A stretch of DNA of 64,000 bases from Rhodospirillales bacterium (GTDB taxonomy: Bacteria; Pseudomonadota; Alphaproteobacteria; Rhodospirillales; Casp-alpha2), in assembly GCA_021775095.1 (NCBI GenBank), contig JAJFII010000047.1, forward strand, positions 1-64,000. Direction: 5' to 3'. This document shows positions 55,096-63,717 of the stretch, piece by piece. The notes under the pieces were generated by a model, which was not told the origin of the DNA, did not search any database, and was given only the letters and a program-made list of their open reading frames with translations. The stretch's first letter is position 1. Each line of letters starts with the position of its first letter. The translations under genes were made by a program, and so were the position numbers.

Positions 55096-55150
55096 CGGTT
55101 TTTGCCAAGAATTAAGAATAAGACCCGCCCCCCCGCATCGCACCCCGCTC

Positions 55151-55434
55151 CTAACCTCCCCCCATGTGGGGGAGGGTTGGGGTGGAGGGTAAAGGATCGG
55201 CACCTTCGGGCTCACAGCTTATCCGACGGTGTCACCCCCATCCTAACCTTCCCCCATCAAGGGGGAAGGGATTCTTTTGGAAGTGGTCGTGGGATTTTTA
55301 TCTATTTTCGCAAGATCCCCCTCCCCCCGTGTGGGGGAGGGTTGGGGTGGGGGGTAAAGGTCCAGCGAACTCTCACGCCCAGATTATCTGGCGCTATCAC
55401 GTCGCTCCTAATCTTCCCCCACGTGGGGAAGGGA
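55151..55434. repeat. Two diverged units of palindromic intergenic repeat
   Basis: Four GC-rich palindromes occur in two kinds. Type A (about 55155-55194 and 55317-55360) reads CCTCCCCC-GTGGGGGAGG followed by GTTGGGGTGG and GGGTAAAGG. Type B (55243-55271 and 55408-55434) reads CTTCCCCC, then a complementary GGGGGAAGG or GGGGAAGGG. The order A-spacer-B occurs twice, and the two spacers align imperfectly (shared CTCAC, TTATC, TCAC, TCCTAA). So it is a tandemly duplicated unit of about 130 bp. Such Pro/Gly-rich palindromes (translating as LPHVGED or similar) are common in alphaproteobacteria and other phyla. They are presumably mobile or structural elements of unknown role. Confidence 0.75.
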
Positions 55435-56511
55435 CAGGTTGAATTCAACCGCTGCCATGGTGCGGCCATTGATCACGATTTCGATTTTATGGTTGCCGGC
55501 GTAATGTTTGCGGGTAGTGAAGTCCTTGAAGACTTGTGATTTGCTTAGGCTCACAGTGTCTTTGGGTTCAAGGGTCAGTTCCTTTAACTTAAAAACCTTC
55601 GGTGCCCGATGGCCGGATTTTTTCACATAATGGATTTTGTAATCGACGCGAAGTTTTTGCCGCGTCGATTTTTGTGAAGTGAGATCAAAGCTGAATTTAA
55701 TCTTTTCACCCAGTTCGATGTGGGTTTTGTCGAGCTTGAGATTGGTGGCGGCGATCTGCGGTTTCGCCGCAAAATCGAACAGGGCAAAGGCGCGGGGGTG
55801 CCCCTGTTTCAAAAGACTACGGGACGCATGTTTGGCGATCCATGCGCTATGGGGATTGGACCGGTCCCAGCCATTGAGCCAATCGAGCATGGTGTCCGGG
55901 TTATCTTTGGAAATATCGTTTAAATGATTGGCAACGGATTTACGCACATACAGCGCGTCATCGGCTTTCAGTCTGTCGAGGATTTTGTGTGTCGGGGTTG
56001 GATCTTTAATCAGCATGGGTAATTTGAAGGACCAGGGAAGGCGGGGGCGGCTGCCTTCGGAAGCCAGCCGGCGGATGTGTTGATTTTCGTTTTCCGCCCA
56101 TTTTACCATGTGATTTAGGGTTCGCTCGAAGTCAATTTTCAGAAATTCGCGGATCGCAAACTCACTTGACGAATAGCGGGTGAAATGTTCAAGGGCGGCG
56201 ATCGAGCGGTCATAATGATCGCGTCCATAGCGGCCCACATAGTCCGGGAATAACATGCTGGCGAAGGACATGTCGTAGGGCACAACCAGAGGATAGAGAA
56301 TCTCCAGGGATTTGCCATAATCATCGGGCAAAACGCCGTGCATCAATTGACTTGTGCGTCGCAATCGGTCCATTAATTCCAATTGATCAAGTCCAGCAAG
56401 GGCGGACTTGAGAAAAAGATCCGTGTCGAATTTTGGATAGGCCTCATAAAGCCGGCCGACGAAGGTGCGGTAAAAATTTTCGTTGAACCCGTTTTTAAGT
56501 TGTTCCGCCAC
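55408..56511 (-). CDS. DNA alkylation repair protein (AlkC/AlkD-like HEAT repeat)
   Basis: This 367-aa helical-repeat protein fits the PF08713 DNA alkylation repair family. It has many repeated helices, with segments such as ALEHFTRYSSSEFAIREFL, MVKWAENENQHIRRLASEGS, RPRLPWSFKLPMLIKDPTPT and ADDALYVRKSVANHLNDISK. The conserved RRLASEG and VRKSVANHLND patterns are AlkC/AlkD-type. It would excise 3-methyladenine-type lesions. About 100 C-terminal residues (from about 265) look like a beta-sandwich add-on. The last residues NLSLPHVGED are encoded by the palindromic repeat. The gene begins overlapping the downstream end of the EamA gene by 17 bp. Confidence 0.87.
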   Translation of the reverse strand: MAEQLKNGFNENFYRTFVGRLYEAYPKFDTDLFLKSALAGLDQLELMDRLRRTSQLMHGVLPDDYGKSLEILYPLVVPYDMSFASMLFPDYVGRYGRDHYDRSIAALEHFTRYSSSEFAIREFLKIDFERTLNHMVKWAENENQHIRRLASEGSRPRLPWSFKLPMLIKDPTPTHKILDRLKADDALYVRKSVANHLNDISKDNPDTMLDWLNGWDRSNPHSAWIAKHASRSLLKQGHPRAFALFDFAAKPQIAATNLKLDKTHIELGEKIKFSFDLTSQKSTRQKLRVDYKIHYVKKSGHRAPKVFKLKELTLEPKDTVSLSKSQVFKDFTTRKHYAGNHKIEIVINGRTMAAVEFNLSLPHVGED

Positions 56512-58532: not shown

Positions 58533-59420
58533 ATGTCACGTCGCCTGCCACCGCTAAATGCCTTAAAGTCCTTTGAAGCGGCAGCTCGACACCTGAGCTT
58601 TACCAAAGCGGCCGAGGAGTTGTTTGTCACTCAGGCGGCGGTCAGCCACCAGATCAAAACCCTTGAGGAGTTTTTGGGCCTGCCCCTGTTTCGGCGCCTG
58701 AACCGATCGCTGCTGTTGACCGACGAAGGACAAATTCTGTATCCGGCAATGAGTGAGGCCCTTGATCTGATTATGGTGACCACCGATCGTCTGCATCGGT
58801 ATCAACAAACAGGTATGCTGAATGTGGCGACAATGGATTCACTTGCCGCCAATTGGCTGGTGCCGCGCCTCGGCCGGTTCCGGCGTGCCAATTCGGATAT
58901 CGATGTCAGGGTGACAACGTCTGACCAGTTGGTTGATTATGTCCGTGATGGCATCGATTTGGGCATTCGCTATGGCCGCGGCACCTGGCCGGGAATGCAC
59001 GTCACCCACCTGATGACCGAGGAGGTGTTTCCGGTCTGCAGTCCCAAACTGCTGGAACAGGGCCCGCCTCTGAACAAACCCGACGATTTGAAACATTACA
59101 CGCTTTTGCACGACGACATGCGTGAAGACTGGCGCATGTGGTTAATGGCGGTTGGCGCAACGGAAGTAGACCCGACTCGCGGTCCCGGATACAAACATTC
59201 AAATTTTGTCTATCAGGCGGCCGTGTTTGGCGATGGTGTTGCCCTCGGTCGCAGTGTCCTGGTGGCTGACGAAATTGAGCAGGGCCGGCTGGTTAAGGTC
59301 CTGGATTTTGCCCTGCCCGCCAATTATGCCTACTGGATAGTATCGCCGCAGGCGATGGCCGATAACCCAAAAGTAAAGCTGTTTCGCGACTGGTTGTTGG
59401 CGGAAGCCCAGGATAGCTGA
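58533..59420 (+). CDS. LysR-family transcriptional regulator (GcvA-like)
   Basis: This 295-aa regulator has the LysR helix-turn-helix at the start (PPLNALKSFEAAARHLSFTK, AAEELFVTQAAVSHQIKTLE). The effector-binding domain follows, with LGRFRRANSDIDVRVTTSDQ and DLGIRYGRGTWPGMHV. The motifs are typical of GcvA-type regulators of catabolism. It runs convergently with the TPP-decarboxylase operon, whose end is 75 bp away, and its likely target promoter is not adjacent. The upstream gap of 240 bp separates it from the DUF1127 gene on the opposite strand. Confidence 0.92.
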   Translation: MSRRLPPLNALKSFEAAARHLSFTKAAEELFVTQAAVSHQIKTLEEFLGLPLFRRLNRSLLLTDEGQILYPAMSEALDLIMVTTDRLHRYQQTGMLNVATMDSLAANWLVPRLGRFRRANSDIDVRVTTSDQLVDYVRDGIDLGIRYGRGTWPGMHVTHLMTEEVFPVCSPKLLEQGPPLNKPDDLKHYTLLHDDMREDWRMWLMAVGATEVDPTRGPGYKHSNFVYQAAVFGDGVALGRSVLVADEIEQGRLVKVLDFALPANYAYWIVSPQAMADNPKVKLFRDWLLAEAQDS

Positions 59421-59494: not shown

Positions 59495-60085
59495 CTAGTG
59501 GCCCGTCGACGCCTGATAGGCGGAACGAAAGCGCAATCGGCATTCGGCCAAATTCATATTTCTTTTGTATGGGGTGGGCGGTCCATCCCTGACACGCAGG
59601 TGGACGAAGCGCGGTCCCGGTGCTTCTGTCAGGAACTTTGCCGCCGCCATCAACTCGGCTTGCGTCTCGACCCGAAGGGTTGACGTGAACCCGGCACCCC
59701 GGGCCATCACGGTCAAATCGGTTTTGTTTGATGTGTGCCCGGTCTGGCCACCGGTTTCACCGTGGCAGCCATTATCGATACAAACAATTGACAGATTATC
59801 GGGGGCAATTGTCGCAACCGTGGCAAGCGATCCAATGTTCATCAAAAGTTCACCATCGCCGGTGACGACCGCCACCGGGCGATTTGGCGCCGCCATCGCA
59901 ACTCCCAATCCCATGCTTGTTGCCGCCCCCATGGCACCAGCCATGGTGAAAAGGTTGTCGCCATCTTCGGTCAGGCCCGCCGTATCGCGGGCCGAGCCGG
60001 CAAGGCCTGTAATGAATAAATAGTCGTCGGGTTTTGGAAACAGGTTAGCGAGAACGTCGCGCCTGTCGAGAGTTGCCGGGATCAT
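59495..60085 (-). CDS. TPP-dependent decarboxylase, beta subunit (sulfopyruvate/phosphonopyruvate decarboxylase-like)
   Basis: This 196-aa subunit is the C-terminal (PP) half of a thiamine-diphosphate enzyme. The TPP signature is VAVVTGDGELLMNIGSLATV, ending with IVCIDNGCHGETGGQTGHT (GDG...N pattern). AGAMGAATSMGLGVAMAA precedes it. The ATG at 60085 starts MIPATLDRRDVLANLF; a longer frame upstream overlaps the alpha gene. With the alpha subunit it resembles ComDE-type sulfopyruvate decarboxylase and phosphonopyruvate decarboxylases, which decarboxylate 3-substituted pyruvates to aldehydes. The real substrate here is not known. Confidence 0.87.
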   Translation of the reverse strand: MIPATLDRRDVLANLFPKPDDYLFITGLAGSARDTAGLTEDGDNLFTMAGAMGAATSMGLGVAMAAPNRPVAVVTGDGELLMNIGSLATVATIAPDNLSIVCIDNGCHGETGGQTGHTSNKTDLTVMARGAGFTSTLRVETQAELMAAAKFLTEAPGPRFVHLRVRDGPPTPYKRNMNLAECRLRFRSAYQASTGH

Positions 60086-60101
60086 GATAACCGTCTCCAC
60101 C

Positions 60102-60623
60102 TTAAAAGGGTTTTGCGCCGAGGAAGCGCTGGGAAAGAATAAGGGCGGCTGAATTTCCGCCTTTGAAGGTCGCAGCAATGGCGGCTTCTGTCGCCGGTGC
60201 CAGATCATCGAGACAATCAACCCGGAACAGCAACACGCCCATAGCCGTTAAAATCGGCTCCACGGCCTGGCCCATGGGATACTGCCAGGGGTTTTGTTCA
60301 CCGTAATCACCGCGCATGGAAACCATCATCAGAATCGGAAACCGCCCGCCGTTCACCAGGGACAAAAAGTTCGGGATGTTGCCGACGCCGGACGATTGCA
60401 TGCATATGACGGCTTTTTTGGCAACCAAATCAGCCCCCGCCGCAATCGCCACGCCTTCTTCTTCCGTCGTTAACAGGATCGGCCTGACGCCGTTATGCGC
60501 TTCGGCATATTCAATCAGGCGTTTGTTGCCCGCATCGGGAATATAAGGGAAAAGTGTGACCCCGGCCTCAACCAGGGCATCGAACAACTGCTTCGGCCAA
60601 TCCGTGTCCTTTTGATCATTCAT
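60102..60623 (-). CDS. TPP-dependent decarboxylase, alpha subunit (sulfopyruvate/phosphonopyruvate decarboxylase-like)
   Basis: This 173-aa subunit is the N-terminal (PYR) half. The catalytic Glu that activates TPP is in LLTTEEEGVAIAAGADLVA. CMQSSGVGNIPNFLSLVNGG and MRGDYGEQNPWQYPMGQAV are typical of ComD-like proteins. The start ATG at 60623 gives MNDQKDTDWPKQLFDAL. A longer frame overlaps the cupin gene. It ends 16 bp before the beta gene, so the subunits are co-expressed. It belongs to a five-gene operon with cupin, hydrolase and epimerase genes. Confidence 0.87.
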   Translation of the reverse strand: MNDQKDTDWPKQLFDALVEAGVTLFPYIPDAGNKRLIEYAEAHNGVRPILLTTEEEGVAIAAGADLVAKKAVICMQSSGVGNIPNFLSLVNGGRFPILMMVSMRGDYGEQNPWQYPMGQAVEPILTAMGVLLFRVDCLDDLAPATEAAIAATFKGGNSAALILSQRFLGAKPF

Positions 60624-60669
60624 TCCGCCAGACCCTTTCTTTTTTTTACCATTGCAAATTTTTTTAACC

Positions 60670-61614
60670 TCACGCGAAGGAAAATCCCATGGTCCGGCCG
60701 TAACTGTAAAGCCCACCGTCCTGGACGATCAGGAAGCGGGCCTGCCTGGAGCCTTCATTGTGATGGGAATGTAAACTTTGCGGTGGCGTGACGGTGGTTG
60801 CCCAGGGGGTCCAGTCCTTACGGTTCCCATCGACCATTGAATAACAGTTTTCACCCTGGACAACCAACGTCACGGCAACCGAATTATGGCGGTGTGCACG
60901 CTGCATATCGCCGGGTGGTAGGGTGTTCATTGCCAAGGTCGAAATCGGGATTATGCTGCGGCCTGTCCTCTGCTTTTGCGATGAGAACATAACCGCAAGG
61001 CCTGCCGTCTCGGCTTTTCTGGCGAGTTCGTAGACCCGTTCGATCTGGCGGTCGATTTCAGCCGCCGGATAAAAAACAACTTCGATACCGCTATTTGCGG
61101 GTTCCAGCGGGCGGACGTTTTCAAATTTCATCTGAGGTTCGTTGGTTACCACCCATAAAACCGCATCGGCTCCGCTGGCTTTTAAGGTCGCGGCGGCACC
61201 ACCGGGAAGCAAAAAAACATCGCCCGGGTTCCAAAGAATGGACTGCCCGGCGATTTCTGTTACCCCTGACCCCTGAATGACATACCAAATTGAGCCAACT
61301 GTATTAAATTCGGCTTCGAGGGTATCGCCGTCATTGATCCGCGCGTAACGGGCCAGCATAAACGGTGAGGTTGCCGGACCGACATCATCCCTACCGAGCT
61401 GGCTGTCGCAAACGATCAACCCGGTTGGCGTCCCCGCCGCCAAGGCTTTTTCCGGCTCCGCCTGAAACACCCTGTCCGGCACTGGCTGCAAGACCCTGTT
61501 AAAAGCGTCATCCGAATTGAAAAAAAGCGCGCGCCTTGCGGCGGCGTTTGCCGGCTTCAGGGGCCGGTGGGCCTTATGCGATGATGCACCGTGTAGCGAG
61601 AGTTCATTTGGCAT
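60670..61614 (-). CDS. Bicupin protein (gentisate 1,2-dioxygenase-like fold)
   Basis: This 314-aa double-cupin protein has an N-terminal cupin with WYVIQGSGVTEIAGQSILWN, whose metal-binding histidines are missing, and a C-terminal cupin with HRHNSVAVTLVVQGENCYSM and a further His in SLHSHHNEGSRQARF. The HxH plus downstream His suggests one iron or divalent metal site. Members near gentisate dioxygenases open aromatic rings, but many are of unknown function. The gene lies between a hydrolase gene and the TPP alpha gene, with 46 bp to the latter. It could act on a diketone or aromatic ring, upstream of decarboxylation. Confidence 0.8.
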   Translation of the reverse strand: MPNELSLHGASSHKAHRPLKPANAAARRALFFNSDDAFNRVLQPVPDRVFQAEPEKALAAGTPTGLIVCDSQLGRDDVGPATSPFMLARYARINDGDTLEAEFNTVGSIWYVIQGSGVTEIAGQSILWNPGDVFLLPGGAAATLKASGADAVLWVVTNEPQMKFENVRPLEPANSGIEVVFYPAAEIDRQIERVYELARKAETAGLAVMFSSQKQRTGRSIIPISTLAMNTLPPGDMQRAHRHNSVAVTLVVQGENCYSMVDGNRKDWTPWATTVTPPQSLHSHHNEGSRQARFLIVQDGGLYSYGRTMGFSFA

Positions 61615-61742
61615 TTTTTGGTTCCACCTGGTTATAAGGAAAGCAAAAATTCAGGTCGTAAAATGTTGAGCTGTCGTCCCCTAAGAATTTTTTGCCGGAC
61701 GTGTAAAAATCCGCCGGTAACCACCGAGCATTTATGCGTCGG

Positions 61743-62606
61743 TTATGGCGTTGCATTTGTTGGCCCCGCATCTCGGGTTTTCCATCGCCGGTTCTCGACC
61801 GTCGAAAAAAAATCCGCACACAGTTCATTAAACCGCGCGGGTTCTTCCAGATTAATCAAATGGCCGGCTTTCGGCATGACCGATAACCCGGCCATCGGCA
61901 TGGTCCGTTTGAGCCAAAGATTGACGTCCAGACAGGCATCGTCCTCATCACCCACCATCAAAAATGTTGGCACCATAGAGGCCGCCAGCTGATCGGCAAA
62001 ATCGTGCATTCCGGGCCGCGCCGCCTGAACGCGCCTGTAGGTATAAGCGCAGCCCATGGCCGGATGTTCCGCCAGGTGGTCGCGAAACTCGGCCCAACCT
62101 TTCGGGTCTTTGTGTTTAAGCTGGATACGGCTCGGGCTGCTGGCCATCTCATCGGCCGCAAACACACCGCTTTTGAGCGTTCGATCCGCTGCCGCAAGGG
62201 TCTCAGCAATAAACGCTTCACGGGTTGGCGGATGGGCACCGGATCCACCGCTGGCGGCAACCAACGCAGAAACCCGATCCATGTGCCGAATGGACATTAA
62301 TAACCCGATATAAGCGCCCATGCTCAAGCCGATCACATGGGTTTTTTTAATCAGCAGATGGTCCAGAACGGCGATCGCATCGGCGAGGTTTTGCTCCCAC
62401 CCATAGGCCGTTTCCTGTTCCGGCACTTGCGACGGCGGATAACCGCGGGCCGCCATAACAATGCAGCGATAGCGACGCGAGAAAAACCGCACTTGCAGTT
62501 CCCAGGCCCGGGCATCACCGGCAAACTCATGCAGAAACAAAAGCGGGTGGCCGCTTCCCGTTTCTTGATAAAAAATCTCAACGCCTTCGTTGGTTACAAA
62601 TGCCAT
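61743..62606 (-). CDS. Alpha/beta-hydrolase
   Basis: This 287-aa alpha/beta-hydrolase has the oxyanion HEFAGDARAWELQVRFF, a nucleophile elbow VIGLSMGAYIGLLMS (G-x-S-x-G), the acid region LMVGDEDDACLDV, and the catalytic His in MPKAGHLINLEEPARFN. This is the dienelactone or C-C hydrolase type used in aromatic and other catabolic operons. The start at 62606 (MAFVTNEGVEIFYQ) is chosen; an in-frame extension upstream lacks similarity. It lies between the epimerase and bicupin genes, about 130 bp from each. Confidence 0.87.
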   Translation of the reverse strand: MAFVTNEGVEIFYQETGSGHPLLFLHEFAGDARAWELQVRFFSRRYRCIVMAARGYPPSQVPEQETAYGWEQNLADAIAVLDHLLIKKTHVIGLSMGAYIGLLMSIRHMDRVSALVAASGGSGAHPPTREAFIAETLAAADRTLKSGVFAADEMASSPSRIQLKHKDPKGWAEFRDHLAEHPAMGCAYTYRRVQAARPGMHDFADQLAASMVPTFLMVGDEDDACLDVNLWLKRTMPMAGLSVMPKAGHLINLEEPARFNELCADFFSTVENRRWKTRDAGPTNATP

Positions 62607-62739
62607 TTTTTGCCATCCCTCGAACTCTAATCCGCGGTCTTTAAGTGCCCCTCGCAACCCCGACCGGCTTCCAACCTTAACCGGCCGTTCAGACCATTGT
62701 GATCAAATAAATAGACTTTTGGATATGATTTATAAGGCC

Positions 62740-63717
62740 TCACTGCAGGGAGCCGAGCAGACGTCGAAGACCGTCTTCCAGGGGCATTTCCGGCTTCCAG
62801 CCTAACAGGGAATGGGCTTTTGAATTGATGTAATGCAGGCCTTTTCCGGTTTTCAACCGCACCCGACCATCGTCTTCGATATATTCGGGCTGAATTGGCG
62901 AGCCGACGATATCGGTGATCATTTGCACCAGGTCTTTGGTCATAATGCTGCGCCCACCGGAAATATTCATCGCCGCATCGGTTGCCTCACTTTCCAGCGC
63001 CATTACGAGGGCGCGCGCCACATCGCCGGCGTAAACGAAATCCTTGCTTTCGGTTCCGTCGCCAAAAAGCTGCGGTGCCTGGCCGCGCGTCAAACGCTCG
63101 TAAGTTTCGATGATATAAAGGGCGTTGGCGGCGCGATGATGCTGACCTTCACCGTAAACGGTTGAAAAGCGCAGGGCGAGATAGTCCAGACCGTATTTCT
63201 GTTGGTACATCCGGCACAGCTGCTCGCCGATAATCTTGCTGCTTCCATACGCCGCCGCCGGTGCCGGAATGCCATTGGTTTTATGGGGCATGTCCTCAGC
63301 AATGCCGCCGCCAATGCCAAACCCGTAAACCGCGCTGGACGAGGCAAAAACCACTTTTTTAAGATTATTCAGGCGGGCACTTTCCAGGAAATTGAGATGG
63401 CCTTTTATGTTGACGTCGATGGCATCCCATGGATTTTGTGAAAATCCCAGCGACATGTAGGCCGCCAGATTGACCGCCCCGTCAATGCCATCCATCTGTT
63501 CGATAAACTGATGCAACTTGGTCACATCACCGGGCACAAGATGAACCCGTGGGTCCTCTTTAAGCGCCCCAAGGGAATCCGTTTTATCAAACAGTACGGG
63601 ATCATAAACAAGGATTTTCGCCGCATTGCCGGCAATCATCGCCTTGACCAGATGCGAGCCGACCAGCGAAGCGCCGCCTGCTATGAGGAATTTTCCACCG
63701 TCTATTTTGATTGCCAT
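62740..63717 (-). CDS. NAD-dependent epimerase/dehydratase (extended SDR)
   Basis: This 325-aa extended SDR has the NAD motif FLIAGGASLVGSHLVKAM, the active-site Ser in VVFASSSAVYGFG, and the Tyr-Lys pair in AAYGSSKIIGEQLCRMY. The N-terminal region and C-terminal LGWKPEMPLEDGLRRLL are typical of nucleotide-sugar epimerases and dehydratases. The start ATG at 63717 (MAIKIDGGKFLIAGG) is favoured; a TTG-starting longer frame has no similarity. It is the first gene of the minus-strand operon that ends in the TPP decarboxylase subunits. Its substrate may be a sugar or other hydroxy compound. Confidence 0.87.
   Translation of the reverse strand: MAIKIDGGKFLIAGGASLVGSHLVKAMIAGNAAKILVYDPVLFDKTDSLGALKEDPRVHLVPGDVTKLHQFIEQMDGIDGAVNLAAYMSLGFSQNPWDAIDVNIKGHLNFLESARLNNLKKVVFASSSAVYGFGIGGGIAEDMPHKTNGIPAPAAAYGSSKIIGEQLCRMYQQKYGLDYLALRFSTVYGEGQHHRAANALYIIETYERLTRGQAPQLFGDGTESKDFVYAGDVARALVMALESEATDAAMNISGGRSIMTKDLVQMITDIVGSPIQPEYIEDDGRVRLKTGKGLHYINSKAHSLLGWKPEMPLEDGLRRLLGSLQ

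What the first reader, a model, noticed from the sequence alone, without database searches (positions are those of the whole stretch)
59495..63717. Unassigned operon: epimerase, hydrolase, bicupin, and split TPP decarboxylase
Five genes in one direction combine an extended SDR, a GxSxG hydrolase, a bicupin with one metal site and a ComDE-like decarboxylase of 3-substituted pyruvates, with a convergent LysR. I know no described pathway with this set. A route through a ring- or C-C-cleaved intermediate to a 2-oxo acid and then an aldehyde is conceivable. A sulfonate or phosphonate substrate is possible but unsupported, as no sulfolactate or phosphonate genes are nearby.
Basis: partly seen in the sequence, partly recalled or inferred. 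Interest (0 to 1): 0.65.

Follow-up and report, generated by a model that had tools for sequence, protein, structure and literature searches.

The report
Non-conserved cluster of uncharacterised catabolic genes
Five real metabolic genes sit in a row here, but relatives keep them in separate places, so they are probably a local assembly rather than one pathway; two of the enzyme families in it are uncharacterised.

Summary
In detail: five intact genes on one strand (extended SDR, alpha/beta-hydrolase, bicupin, split TPP decarboxylase alpha and beta) with a convergent GcvA-type LysR. The decarboxylase is in 33 of 47 other genomes of the family, and none of 20 such loci examined has bicupin or hydrolase beside it. 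The SDR has 77-79% orthologues in three sister genomes, on other contigs. Of 80 named bicupin loci, 1 has the decarboxylase and 12 the hydrolase nearby. Only one sister genome (ANT-23) keeps decarboxylase, bicupin and hydrolase within 10 kb, interleaved with other genes on both strands. The decarboxylase passes neither the sulfopyruvate nor the phosphonopyruvate decarboxylase cut-off; other genes of the same genome pass each. The bicupin is nearest gentisate/salicylate dioxygenases, but its metal site is in the C-terminal barrel and it lacks the arginine essential in salicylate dioxygenase. Best reading: separately inherited catabolic pieces side by side, some perhaps recruited together in two species. 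Interest lies in the two uncharacterised enzyme families, not in a conserved operon.

The parts
62743..63717 (-). extended SDR (NAD-dependent epimerase/dehydratase superfamily)
   Evidence: Pfam PF01370 145.6 bits; below the cut-off of each of the 25 NCBIfam families shown; 77-79% orthologues in three sister genomes on other contigs
61746..62606 (-). alpha/beta-hydrolase, PcaD-like, GLSMG nucleophile motif
   Evidence: 44-48% relatives within the held flanks (up to 10 kb) of the bicupin in 12 of 80 named loci
60673..61614 (-). bicupin of the gentisate/salicylate dioxygenase fold, metal site H241/H243/H282 in the C-terminal barrel
60105..60623 (-). TPP decarboxylase alpha subunit (PYR domain, ComD-like), PDAG and TTEEEG motifs
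59498..60091 (-). TPP decarboxylase beta subunit (PP domain, ComE-like), GDG...DNG motif
58533..59420 (+). convergent LysR regulator, GcvA subfamily; no evidence that it controls the five genes

Best explanation
The array is a lineage-specific juxtaposition of at least three separately inherited pieces, not a conserved pathway operon. Piece 1, TPPa-TPPb, is a two-subunit TPP enzyme: the alpha (PYR) and beta (PP) chains form the cofactor site between them and decarboxylate a 2-oxo acid to an aldehyde (shown: domains, motifs, family-wide distribution; inferred: activity and substrate). It belongs to a clade separate from the genome's own sulfopyruvate and phosphonopyruvate decarboxylases. Piece 2, hydrolase plus bicupin: the bicupin binds one metal through H241, H243 and H282 and acts on a small oxygen- or nitrogen-bearing ring or an opened derivative, and the serine hydrolase then splits its product (shown: motifs, fold, recurrent neighbourhoods with amidohydrolases and NMT1/THI5-type transporters; inferred: chemistry). 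Piece 3, the SDR, is a genus-level enzyme that in sister genome G003 lies beside an enolase-superfamily and a mannitol-dehydrogenase gene, so probably an acid-sugar dehydrogenase or epimerase (inferred).
For: TPPb orthologue (at least 53% identity, my threshold) in 33 of 47 other family genomes, two of them partial, and in 3 of the 102 further relatives searched; in the tree the three genus members group together and the other genera form groups too; 0 of 20 such loci hold bicupin or hydrolase, and their neighbours vary: sucAB-lpd, his genes (by eye), TctABC, TcuAB. Bicupin in 4 of 47 other family genomes; in three of these, all genus g4, no TPPab or hydrolase in the held flanks (contig ends close in two). 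SDR orthologues on other contigs in 3 of 3 sister genomes. Named bicupin loci: TPPab in 1 of 80, hydrolase in 12 of 80; a TauD-type dioxygenase directly downstream in 38 of the 73 loci where my script called the bicupin. Of 21 class genomes with the bicupin, 2 (G000, G204) have the hydrolase within 10 kb (positions).
Against: In ANT-23 (G003) TPPab, bicupin and hydrolase still lie within 10 kb, which chance alone would rarely give. G002 has the same TPPab-HrpB-glycerol gene order, but its contig ends before the place where the bicupin would lie, so it does not tell. The three proteins co-occur across the class (bicupin-hydrolase 19 of 21 genomes; bicupin-TPPb 8 of 21; TPPb-hydrolase 19 of 20, read), but a control gene, gentisate dioxygenase, also co-occurs with the bicupin (12 of 17), so this is not specific. 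G001 and G003 each have a different extended SDR downstream of TPPab. Several loci are cut by contig ends.
Confidence: 0.6

Rival explanations
1. One reading: hydrolase, bicupin and TPPab (with or without the SDR) form one real pathway private to this and the sister species. The bicupin opens a ring or C-C bond, the hydrolase releases a 2-oxo acid, TPPab decarboxylates it to an aldehyde and the SDR changes its redox state.
For: Same strand, short gaps; linkage within 10 kb kept in ANT-23 despite rearrangement; hydrolase near bicupin recurs; two-subunit TPP decarboxylases do occur in heterocycle catabolism (LumK/LumL, PMC12746152, abstract and passages read); an acetoacetate--CoA ligase lies just upstream.
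Against: The set was not seen outside two genomes; 0 of 20 relatives' TPPab loci have bicupin or hydrolase; SDR on other contigs in three of three sisters.
Confidence: 0.25
2. TPPab is a sulfopyruvate or phosphonopyruvate decarboxylase and the array serves a sulfonate or phosphonate.
For: Nearest characterised families are sulfopyruvate and phosphonopyruvate decarboxylase; best solved chain is 9iz3, a phosphonopyruvate decarboxylase beta subunit; the genome has Xsc over cut-off.
Against: Below both cut-offs, while the same genome's C59 pair passes sulfopyruvate decarboxylase beside a 2-hydroxyacid dehydrogenase, and C111 passes phosphonopyruvate decarboxylase beside PEP mutase; Xsc sits with ald- and pta-like genes (read by eye); separated from both in the tree with 100/98 support; alpha chain has PDAG where ComD and Ppd have VPC.
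Confidence: 0.07
3. The bicupin is a gentisate- or salicylate-type ring-cleaving dioxygenase and the array is an aromatic degradation operon.
For: Best fold matches are salicylate and gentisate dioxygenases (VIA Z 25.4, rmsd 3.0, 257 residues); three metal histidines and the His162 equivalent invariant apart from one ambiguous residue.
Against: 57.8 bits against a 442.1 cut-off; metal site in the other barrel; Arg127, essential in salicylate dioxygenase (PMC10306065, passages read), is never Arg here.
Confidence: 0.1

Closest known systems
Sulfopyruvate decarboxylase ComDE and phosphonopyruvate decarboxylases Ppd / RhiEF
   Same: Split PYR and PP subunits in adjacent genes (ComDE, RhiEF), GDG...DNG cofactor motif, conserved E-x-E region
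   Different: Below the curated cut-offs; PDAG and TTEEEG motifs instead of VPC; separate well-supported group in the tree; no sulfolactate or PEP mutase genes beside it. RhiEF itself was not in the tree
LumK/LumL quinoxaline-carboxylate decarboxylase (PMC12746152, passages)
   Same: Two-subunit TPP decarboxylase in a catabolic cluster that also has a cupin protein and ends in acetoacetate and pyruvate
   Different: Sequences not held, so not compared; no Rieske, P450 or xanthine-oxidase gene among the five
Gentisate/salicylate 1,2-dioxygenases
   Same: Bicupin fold, HxH...H site and the following histidine
   Different: Functional site in the C-terminal instead of the N-terminal barrel; substrate arginine missing; far below the family cut-off
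(S)-ureidoglycine aminohydrolase AllE
   Same: Bicupin with the site in the C-terminal barrel (recalled); VIA Z 18.6 for 4e2q; carbamoylase-type neighbours of bicupin relatives in 8 loci
   Different: 19.5 bits against 445
3-oxoadipate enol-lactonase PcaD
   Same: alpha/beta-hydrolase fold and triad
   Different: 89.1 bits against 255.85

Membership tests
Sulfopyruvate decarboxylase (TIGR03845/TIGR03846) | curated cut-offs, alpha and beta | tested here: not met
   101.9 against 147.95 and 124.5 against 221.5; positive control in the same genome passes with 160.7 and 236.4
Sulfopyruvate decarboxylase | two adjacent genes for PYR and PP subunits | tested here: met
Sulfopyruvate decarboxylase | VPC motif of alpha seen in a pair that passes the cut-off and its near relatives (derived here, not from a paper) | tested here: not met
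   PD-x-G in 36 of 36 window- and C6-type alpha chains; VPC in the own-genome pair that passes and two relatives (3 of 3) and in the Ppd (1 of 1)
Sulfopyruvate or phosphonopyruvate decarboxylase | activity on the substrate | not testable with these tools
   needs purified enzyme
Phosphonopyruvate decarboxylase (TIGR03297) | curated cut-off, 312.5 bits | tested here: not met
   54.0 (alpha) and 114.6 (beta); C111 control 422 bits. The model is for a single chain, so a split pair such as RhiEF could also fall short
LumK/LumL | sequence similarity | not tested
   sequences not held
Gentisate/salicylate 1,2-dioxygenase | family cut-off TIGR02272, 442.1 bits | tested here: not met
   57.8 bits
Gentisate/salicylate 1,2-dioxygenase | bicupin fold | tested here: met
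   model pLDDT 85.5; Foldseek E 6.2e-17; VIA Z 25.4
Gentisate/salicylate 1,2-dioxygenase | three-histidine metal site | tested here: met
   H241, H243, H282 in 24 of 24 (A2) and 40 of 40, save one X at 243 (A4)
Gentisate/salicylate 1,2-dioxygenase | iron site in the N-terminal barrel | tested here: not met
   site in the C-terminal barrel; N-terminal placement, with two-site exceptions, stated in PMC10306065
Gentisate/salicylate 1,2-dioxygenase | catalytic Arg127 | tested here: not met
   T249 position, never Arg in 24 and 40 sequences (one X), by the alignment
Gentisate/salicylate 1,2-dioxygenase | same barrel order (or a swapped one) | tested here: inconclusive
   N-half scores higher on the C-barrel in 5 of 5 chains shown; C-half higher on the N-barrel in the 4 of 5 shown (one of these, 8ch4, is a monocupin; 2d40 and two SDO chains are the informative ones), opposite in 3bu7, which has both sites; VIA aligns the barrels in sequential order
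(S)-ureidoglycine aminohydrolase | NCBIfam cut-off | tested here: not met
   19.5 against 445
PcaD | NCBIfam cut-off | tested here: not met
   89.1 against 255.85
GcvA-subfamily LysR | NCBIfam subfamily cut-off | tested here: met
   390.5 against 288

The most novel reading that the evidence does not exclude
Hydrolase, bicupin and TPPab form a new heterocycle or aromatic catabolic route in this genus: a C-terminal-site bicupin without the dioxygenase arginine opens or hydrates the ring, the hydrolase cuts the product, and a further clade of two-subunit TPP enzyme decarboxylates the resulting acid, parallel to LumK/LumL and unrelated to sulfonates and phosphonates.
Probability: 0.12. Interest if true: 0.6.

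Novelty: new variant of a known kind. Interest (0 to 1): 0.3.

Why it matters
It warns against reading a same-strand run of enzymes as one pathway: conservation splits this one into pieces. It also points to two uncharacterised enzyme families: a clade of split TPP decarboxylases found in 33 of 47 other genomes of the family, and a broad bicupin family (242 relatives among the candidate stretches of one scan of a species-level genome set) often directly followed by a TauD-type dioxygenase. Either would be a tractable biochemical target; this genome's own sulfopyruvate- and phosphonopyruvate-type decarboxylases would serve as controls.

Tried and rejected
Rejected: a sulfonate or phosphonate role for TPPab (own-genome controls pass the cut-offs, it does not). 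Rejected: a plain gentisate dioxygenase (cut-off, arginine). Not upheld: phyletic co-occurrence as proof of a functional link. Bicupin-hydrolase is 19 of 21 genomes against 48 of 364 without bicupin, bicupin-TPPb 8 of 21 against 12 of 364, TPPb-hydrolase 19 of 20 (read); but a control gene, gentisate dioxygenase, gives 12 of 17 against 35 of 310, assuming that all 17 bicupin genomes with handles up to G447 were in that smaller sample, which the output does not list in full. Left open: a barrel swap relative to gentisate dioxygenase. Led nowhere: first genome-contig scan with the single protein (no relative); plasmid search (7 records: 3 hypothetical proteins, 1 cupin protein, 3 without annotation); promoter/terminator scan. 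My simple gene caller chose wrong frames in some GC-rich loci (seen), so layout counts are lower bounds; tblastn counts do not depend on it.

Rows dropped or not used: A2 holds 24 of 25 bicupins then at hand (L020, near L018, left out). A4, used for the fold, holds the window and 39 of the 80 named loci; L149 and L171 were left out because the tool reported a stop in the translation, L160, L161, L164 and L201 as a precaution without test, the rest to keep the list short. A5 and A6 hold 20 of the 40 rows of A4. Of the 36 near TPPb places, 20 were fetched with wide flanks, besides G003 and fragments of G002.
Full report
Observation. The five genes and the convergent LysR are in the sequence at the stated place and intact. 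The hydrolase has the GLSMG motif, and the bicupin one metal site (H241, H243, H282, with H284 beside it). All five are below the cut-off of every NCBIfam family shown (at most the best 25 per protein). The contig runs on beyond the window; an acetoacetate--CoA ligase in the same direction precedes the SDR (873 bits against 520.9), followed further out by Gfo/Idh, VOC-like, DctP-like, Ldh_2 and TctAB-like genes (several named by eye).

Is the set conserved? The searches cover 150 genomes: this one, 47 others of the family and 102 further relatives. The bicupin was found in 4 of the 47 and 0 of the 102 at E 1e-10. In the three g4 genomes no TPPab or hydrolase is in the held flanks. TPPb orthologues of at least 53% identity occur in 33 of the 47 (two partial) and 3 of the 102. 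I fetched 20 of these loci with wide flanks: none has bicupin or hydrolase; neighbours include sucAB-lpd, histidine genes, TctABC-type transporters with an Ldh_2 gene, or FabG-EthD-SDR-TcuAB. Some of these loci are cut by contig ends. G002 shows the same TPPab-HrpB-GlpD-GlpK order as ANT-23, but its contig ends there and no bicupin was found in that genome. The SDR has 77-79% orthologues in all three sister genomes, on contigs other than TPPab; in G003 it is beside an enolase-superfamily and a mannitol-dehydrogenase gene, in G002 beside the same enolase-like gene before the contig ends, in G001 near gpsA-like genes. Sisters G001 and G003 have another extended SDR (48% to each other over the 146 residues first held, 25-26% to the window's) downstream of TPPab.

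Named relatives of the bicupin. One scan of species-level genomes gave 242 confirmed relatives among matching stretches, the best 80 with flanks up to 10 kb, some shorter. By tblastn the hydrolase (44-48%) is near it in 12 of 80: ANT-23, Bradyrhizobium, Xanthobacter (2), Methylobacterium (3), Pseudomonas (2), Azorhizobium, a Ramlibacter MAG and a Rhizobiales MAG; TPPab is near it in 1 of 80, ANT-23. In Bradyrhizobium, both Xanthobacter and P. viridiflava the called order is SDR, aminotransferase, hydrolase, M20 carbamoylase, bicupin, opposite an ABC transporter of the NMT1/SsuA kind, in some with a class II aldolase. In a different sample, 21 of 385 class genomes had the bicupin and 2 of these 21 had the hydrolase within 10 kb. 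In 38 of the 73 loci where the script called the bicupin, a TauD-type dioxygenase follows directly. Clusters of luciferase-type monooxygenase (5 loci), nucleoside hydrolase (3) and Amidohydro_2 proteins (10; COG3618 label recalled) also recur within three genes. This suggests N- or O-heterocycle catabolism, but no substrate.

What TPPab is. In the same genome, pair C59 passes both sulfopyruvate decarboxylase cut-offs (160.7 and 236.4) beside a 2-hydroxyacid dehydrogenase; C111 passes phosphonopyruvate decarboxylase (422) beside PEP mutase (388.6); C30 holds Xsc (961 bits) between genes read by eye as ald and pta; C6 holds a second sub-threshold pair between TctCBA-type genes and an aldehyde dehydrogenase. 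The window pair fails all these cut-offs. In a tree of 40 beta chains, window and C6 types separate from ComE and Ppd with 100/98 support. The three genus members group together (96/89), but the window-like rows as a whole are not one clade: those of G074 and G090 fall with the C6 type, deep forks are open, and long branches are flagged. Alpha chains of window and C6 types have PDAG or a close variant (36 of 36) where ComD (3 of 3) and Ppd (1 of 1) have VPC.

What the bicupin is. The AlphaFold model (pLDDT 85.5, 40-row alignment) matches salicylate and gentisate dioxygenases best. Metal histidines are invariant save one ambiguous residue, but Arg127, essential in salicylate dioxygenase (PMC10306065, passages), is replaced, and the site is in the C-terminal barrel, whereas that paper states that the N-terminal barrel carries it in bicupin dioxygenases, with two-site exceptions such as the S. 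pomeroyi enzyme. Whether the barrels are swapped is open.

Co-occurrence control. Bicupin and hydrolase co-occur in 19 of 21 bicupin genomes of 385, TPPb in 8 of 21, but gentisate dioxygenase, chosen as a catabolic gene with no expected tie, co-occurs too (12 of 17). I give this no weight either way.

Literature. By the passages read, ComDE, RhiEF and LumK/LumL are the described two-subunit TPP decarboxylases (PMC12141560 and PMC12746152). The listings of searches showed no operon with this set; they cover open-access text only and most papers were not opened.

Verdict. Observation confirmed; a single conserved pathway not supported; most likely a local assembly of separately inherited catabolic pieces (0.6), with a genus-private route as the main rival (0.25).

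Noticed in passing
L011 (own genome, contig C6, about 274000-280200): TctCBA-type transporter, a second sub-threshold split TPP decarboxylase and an aldehyde dehydrogenase in a row; TctC and TctA next to such a pair also in 6 of 15 further loci fetched, with the aldehyde dehydrogenase in 3 of them, once partial. An uncharacterised uptake-decarboxylation-oxidation set.
   Followed up: partly
L010, L213, L214 (own genome contigs C59, C111, C30): Same genome carries a pair over the sulfopyruvate decarboxylase cut-offs, a phosphonopyruvate decarboxylase with PEP mutase, and Xsc with ald- and pta-like genes.
   Followed up: yes
L134-L212 (named bicupin loci): Bicupin directly followed by a TauD-type dioxygenase in 38 loci; a strongly recurrent pair whose function I could not place.
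   Followed up: partly
L187, L191, L199 (Kaistia and other Rhizobiales; similar runs in L175 and L197): Amidase, bicupin, nucleoside hydrolase, luciferase-type monooxygenase, aldehyde dehydrogenase-like and NMT1-type proteins in one run; looks like nucleoside or heterocycle catabolism.
   Followed up: no
window 55100-55450: Overlapping frames give similar NLPP...GGGLGW-like stretches several times; probably an intergenic repeat element.
   Followed up: no
L095 (sister genome G001): TPPab between a FabG-like gene and an EthD-like gene, extended SDR, TcuA and TcuB (tricarballylate genes over equivalog cut-offs).
   Followed up: partly
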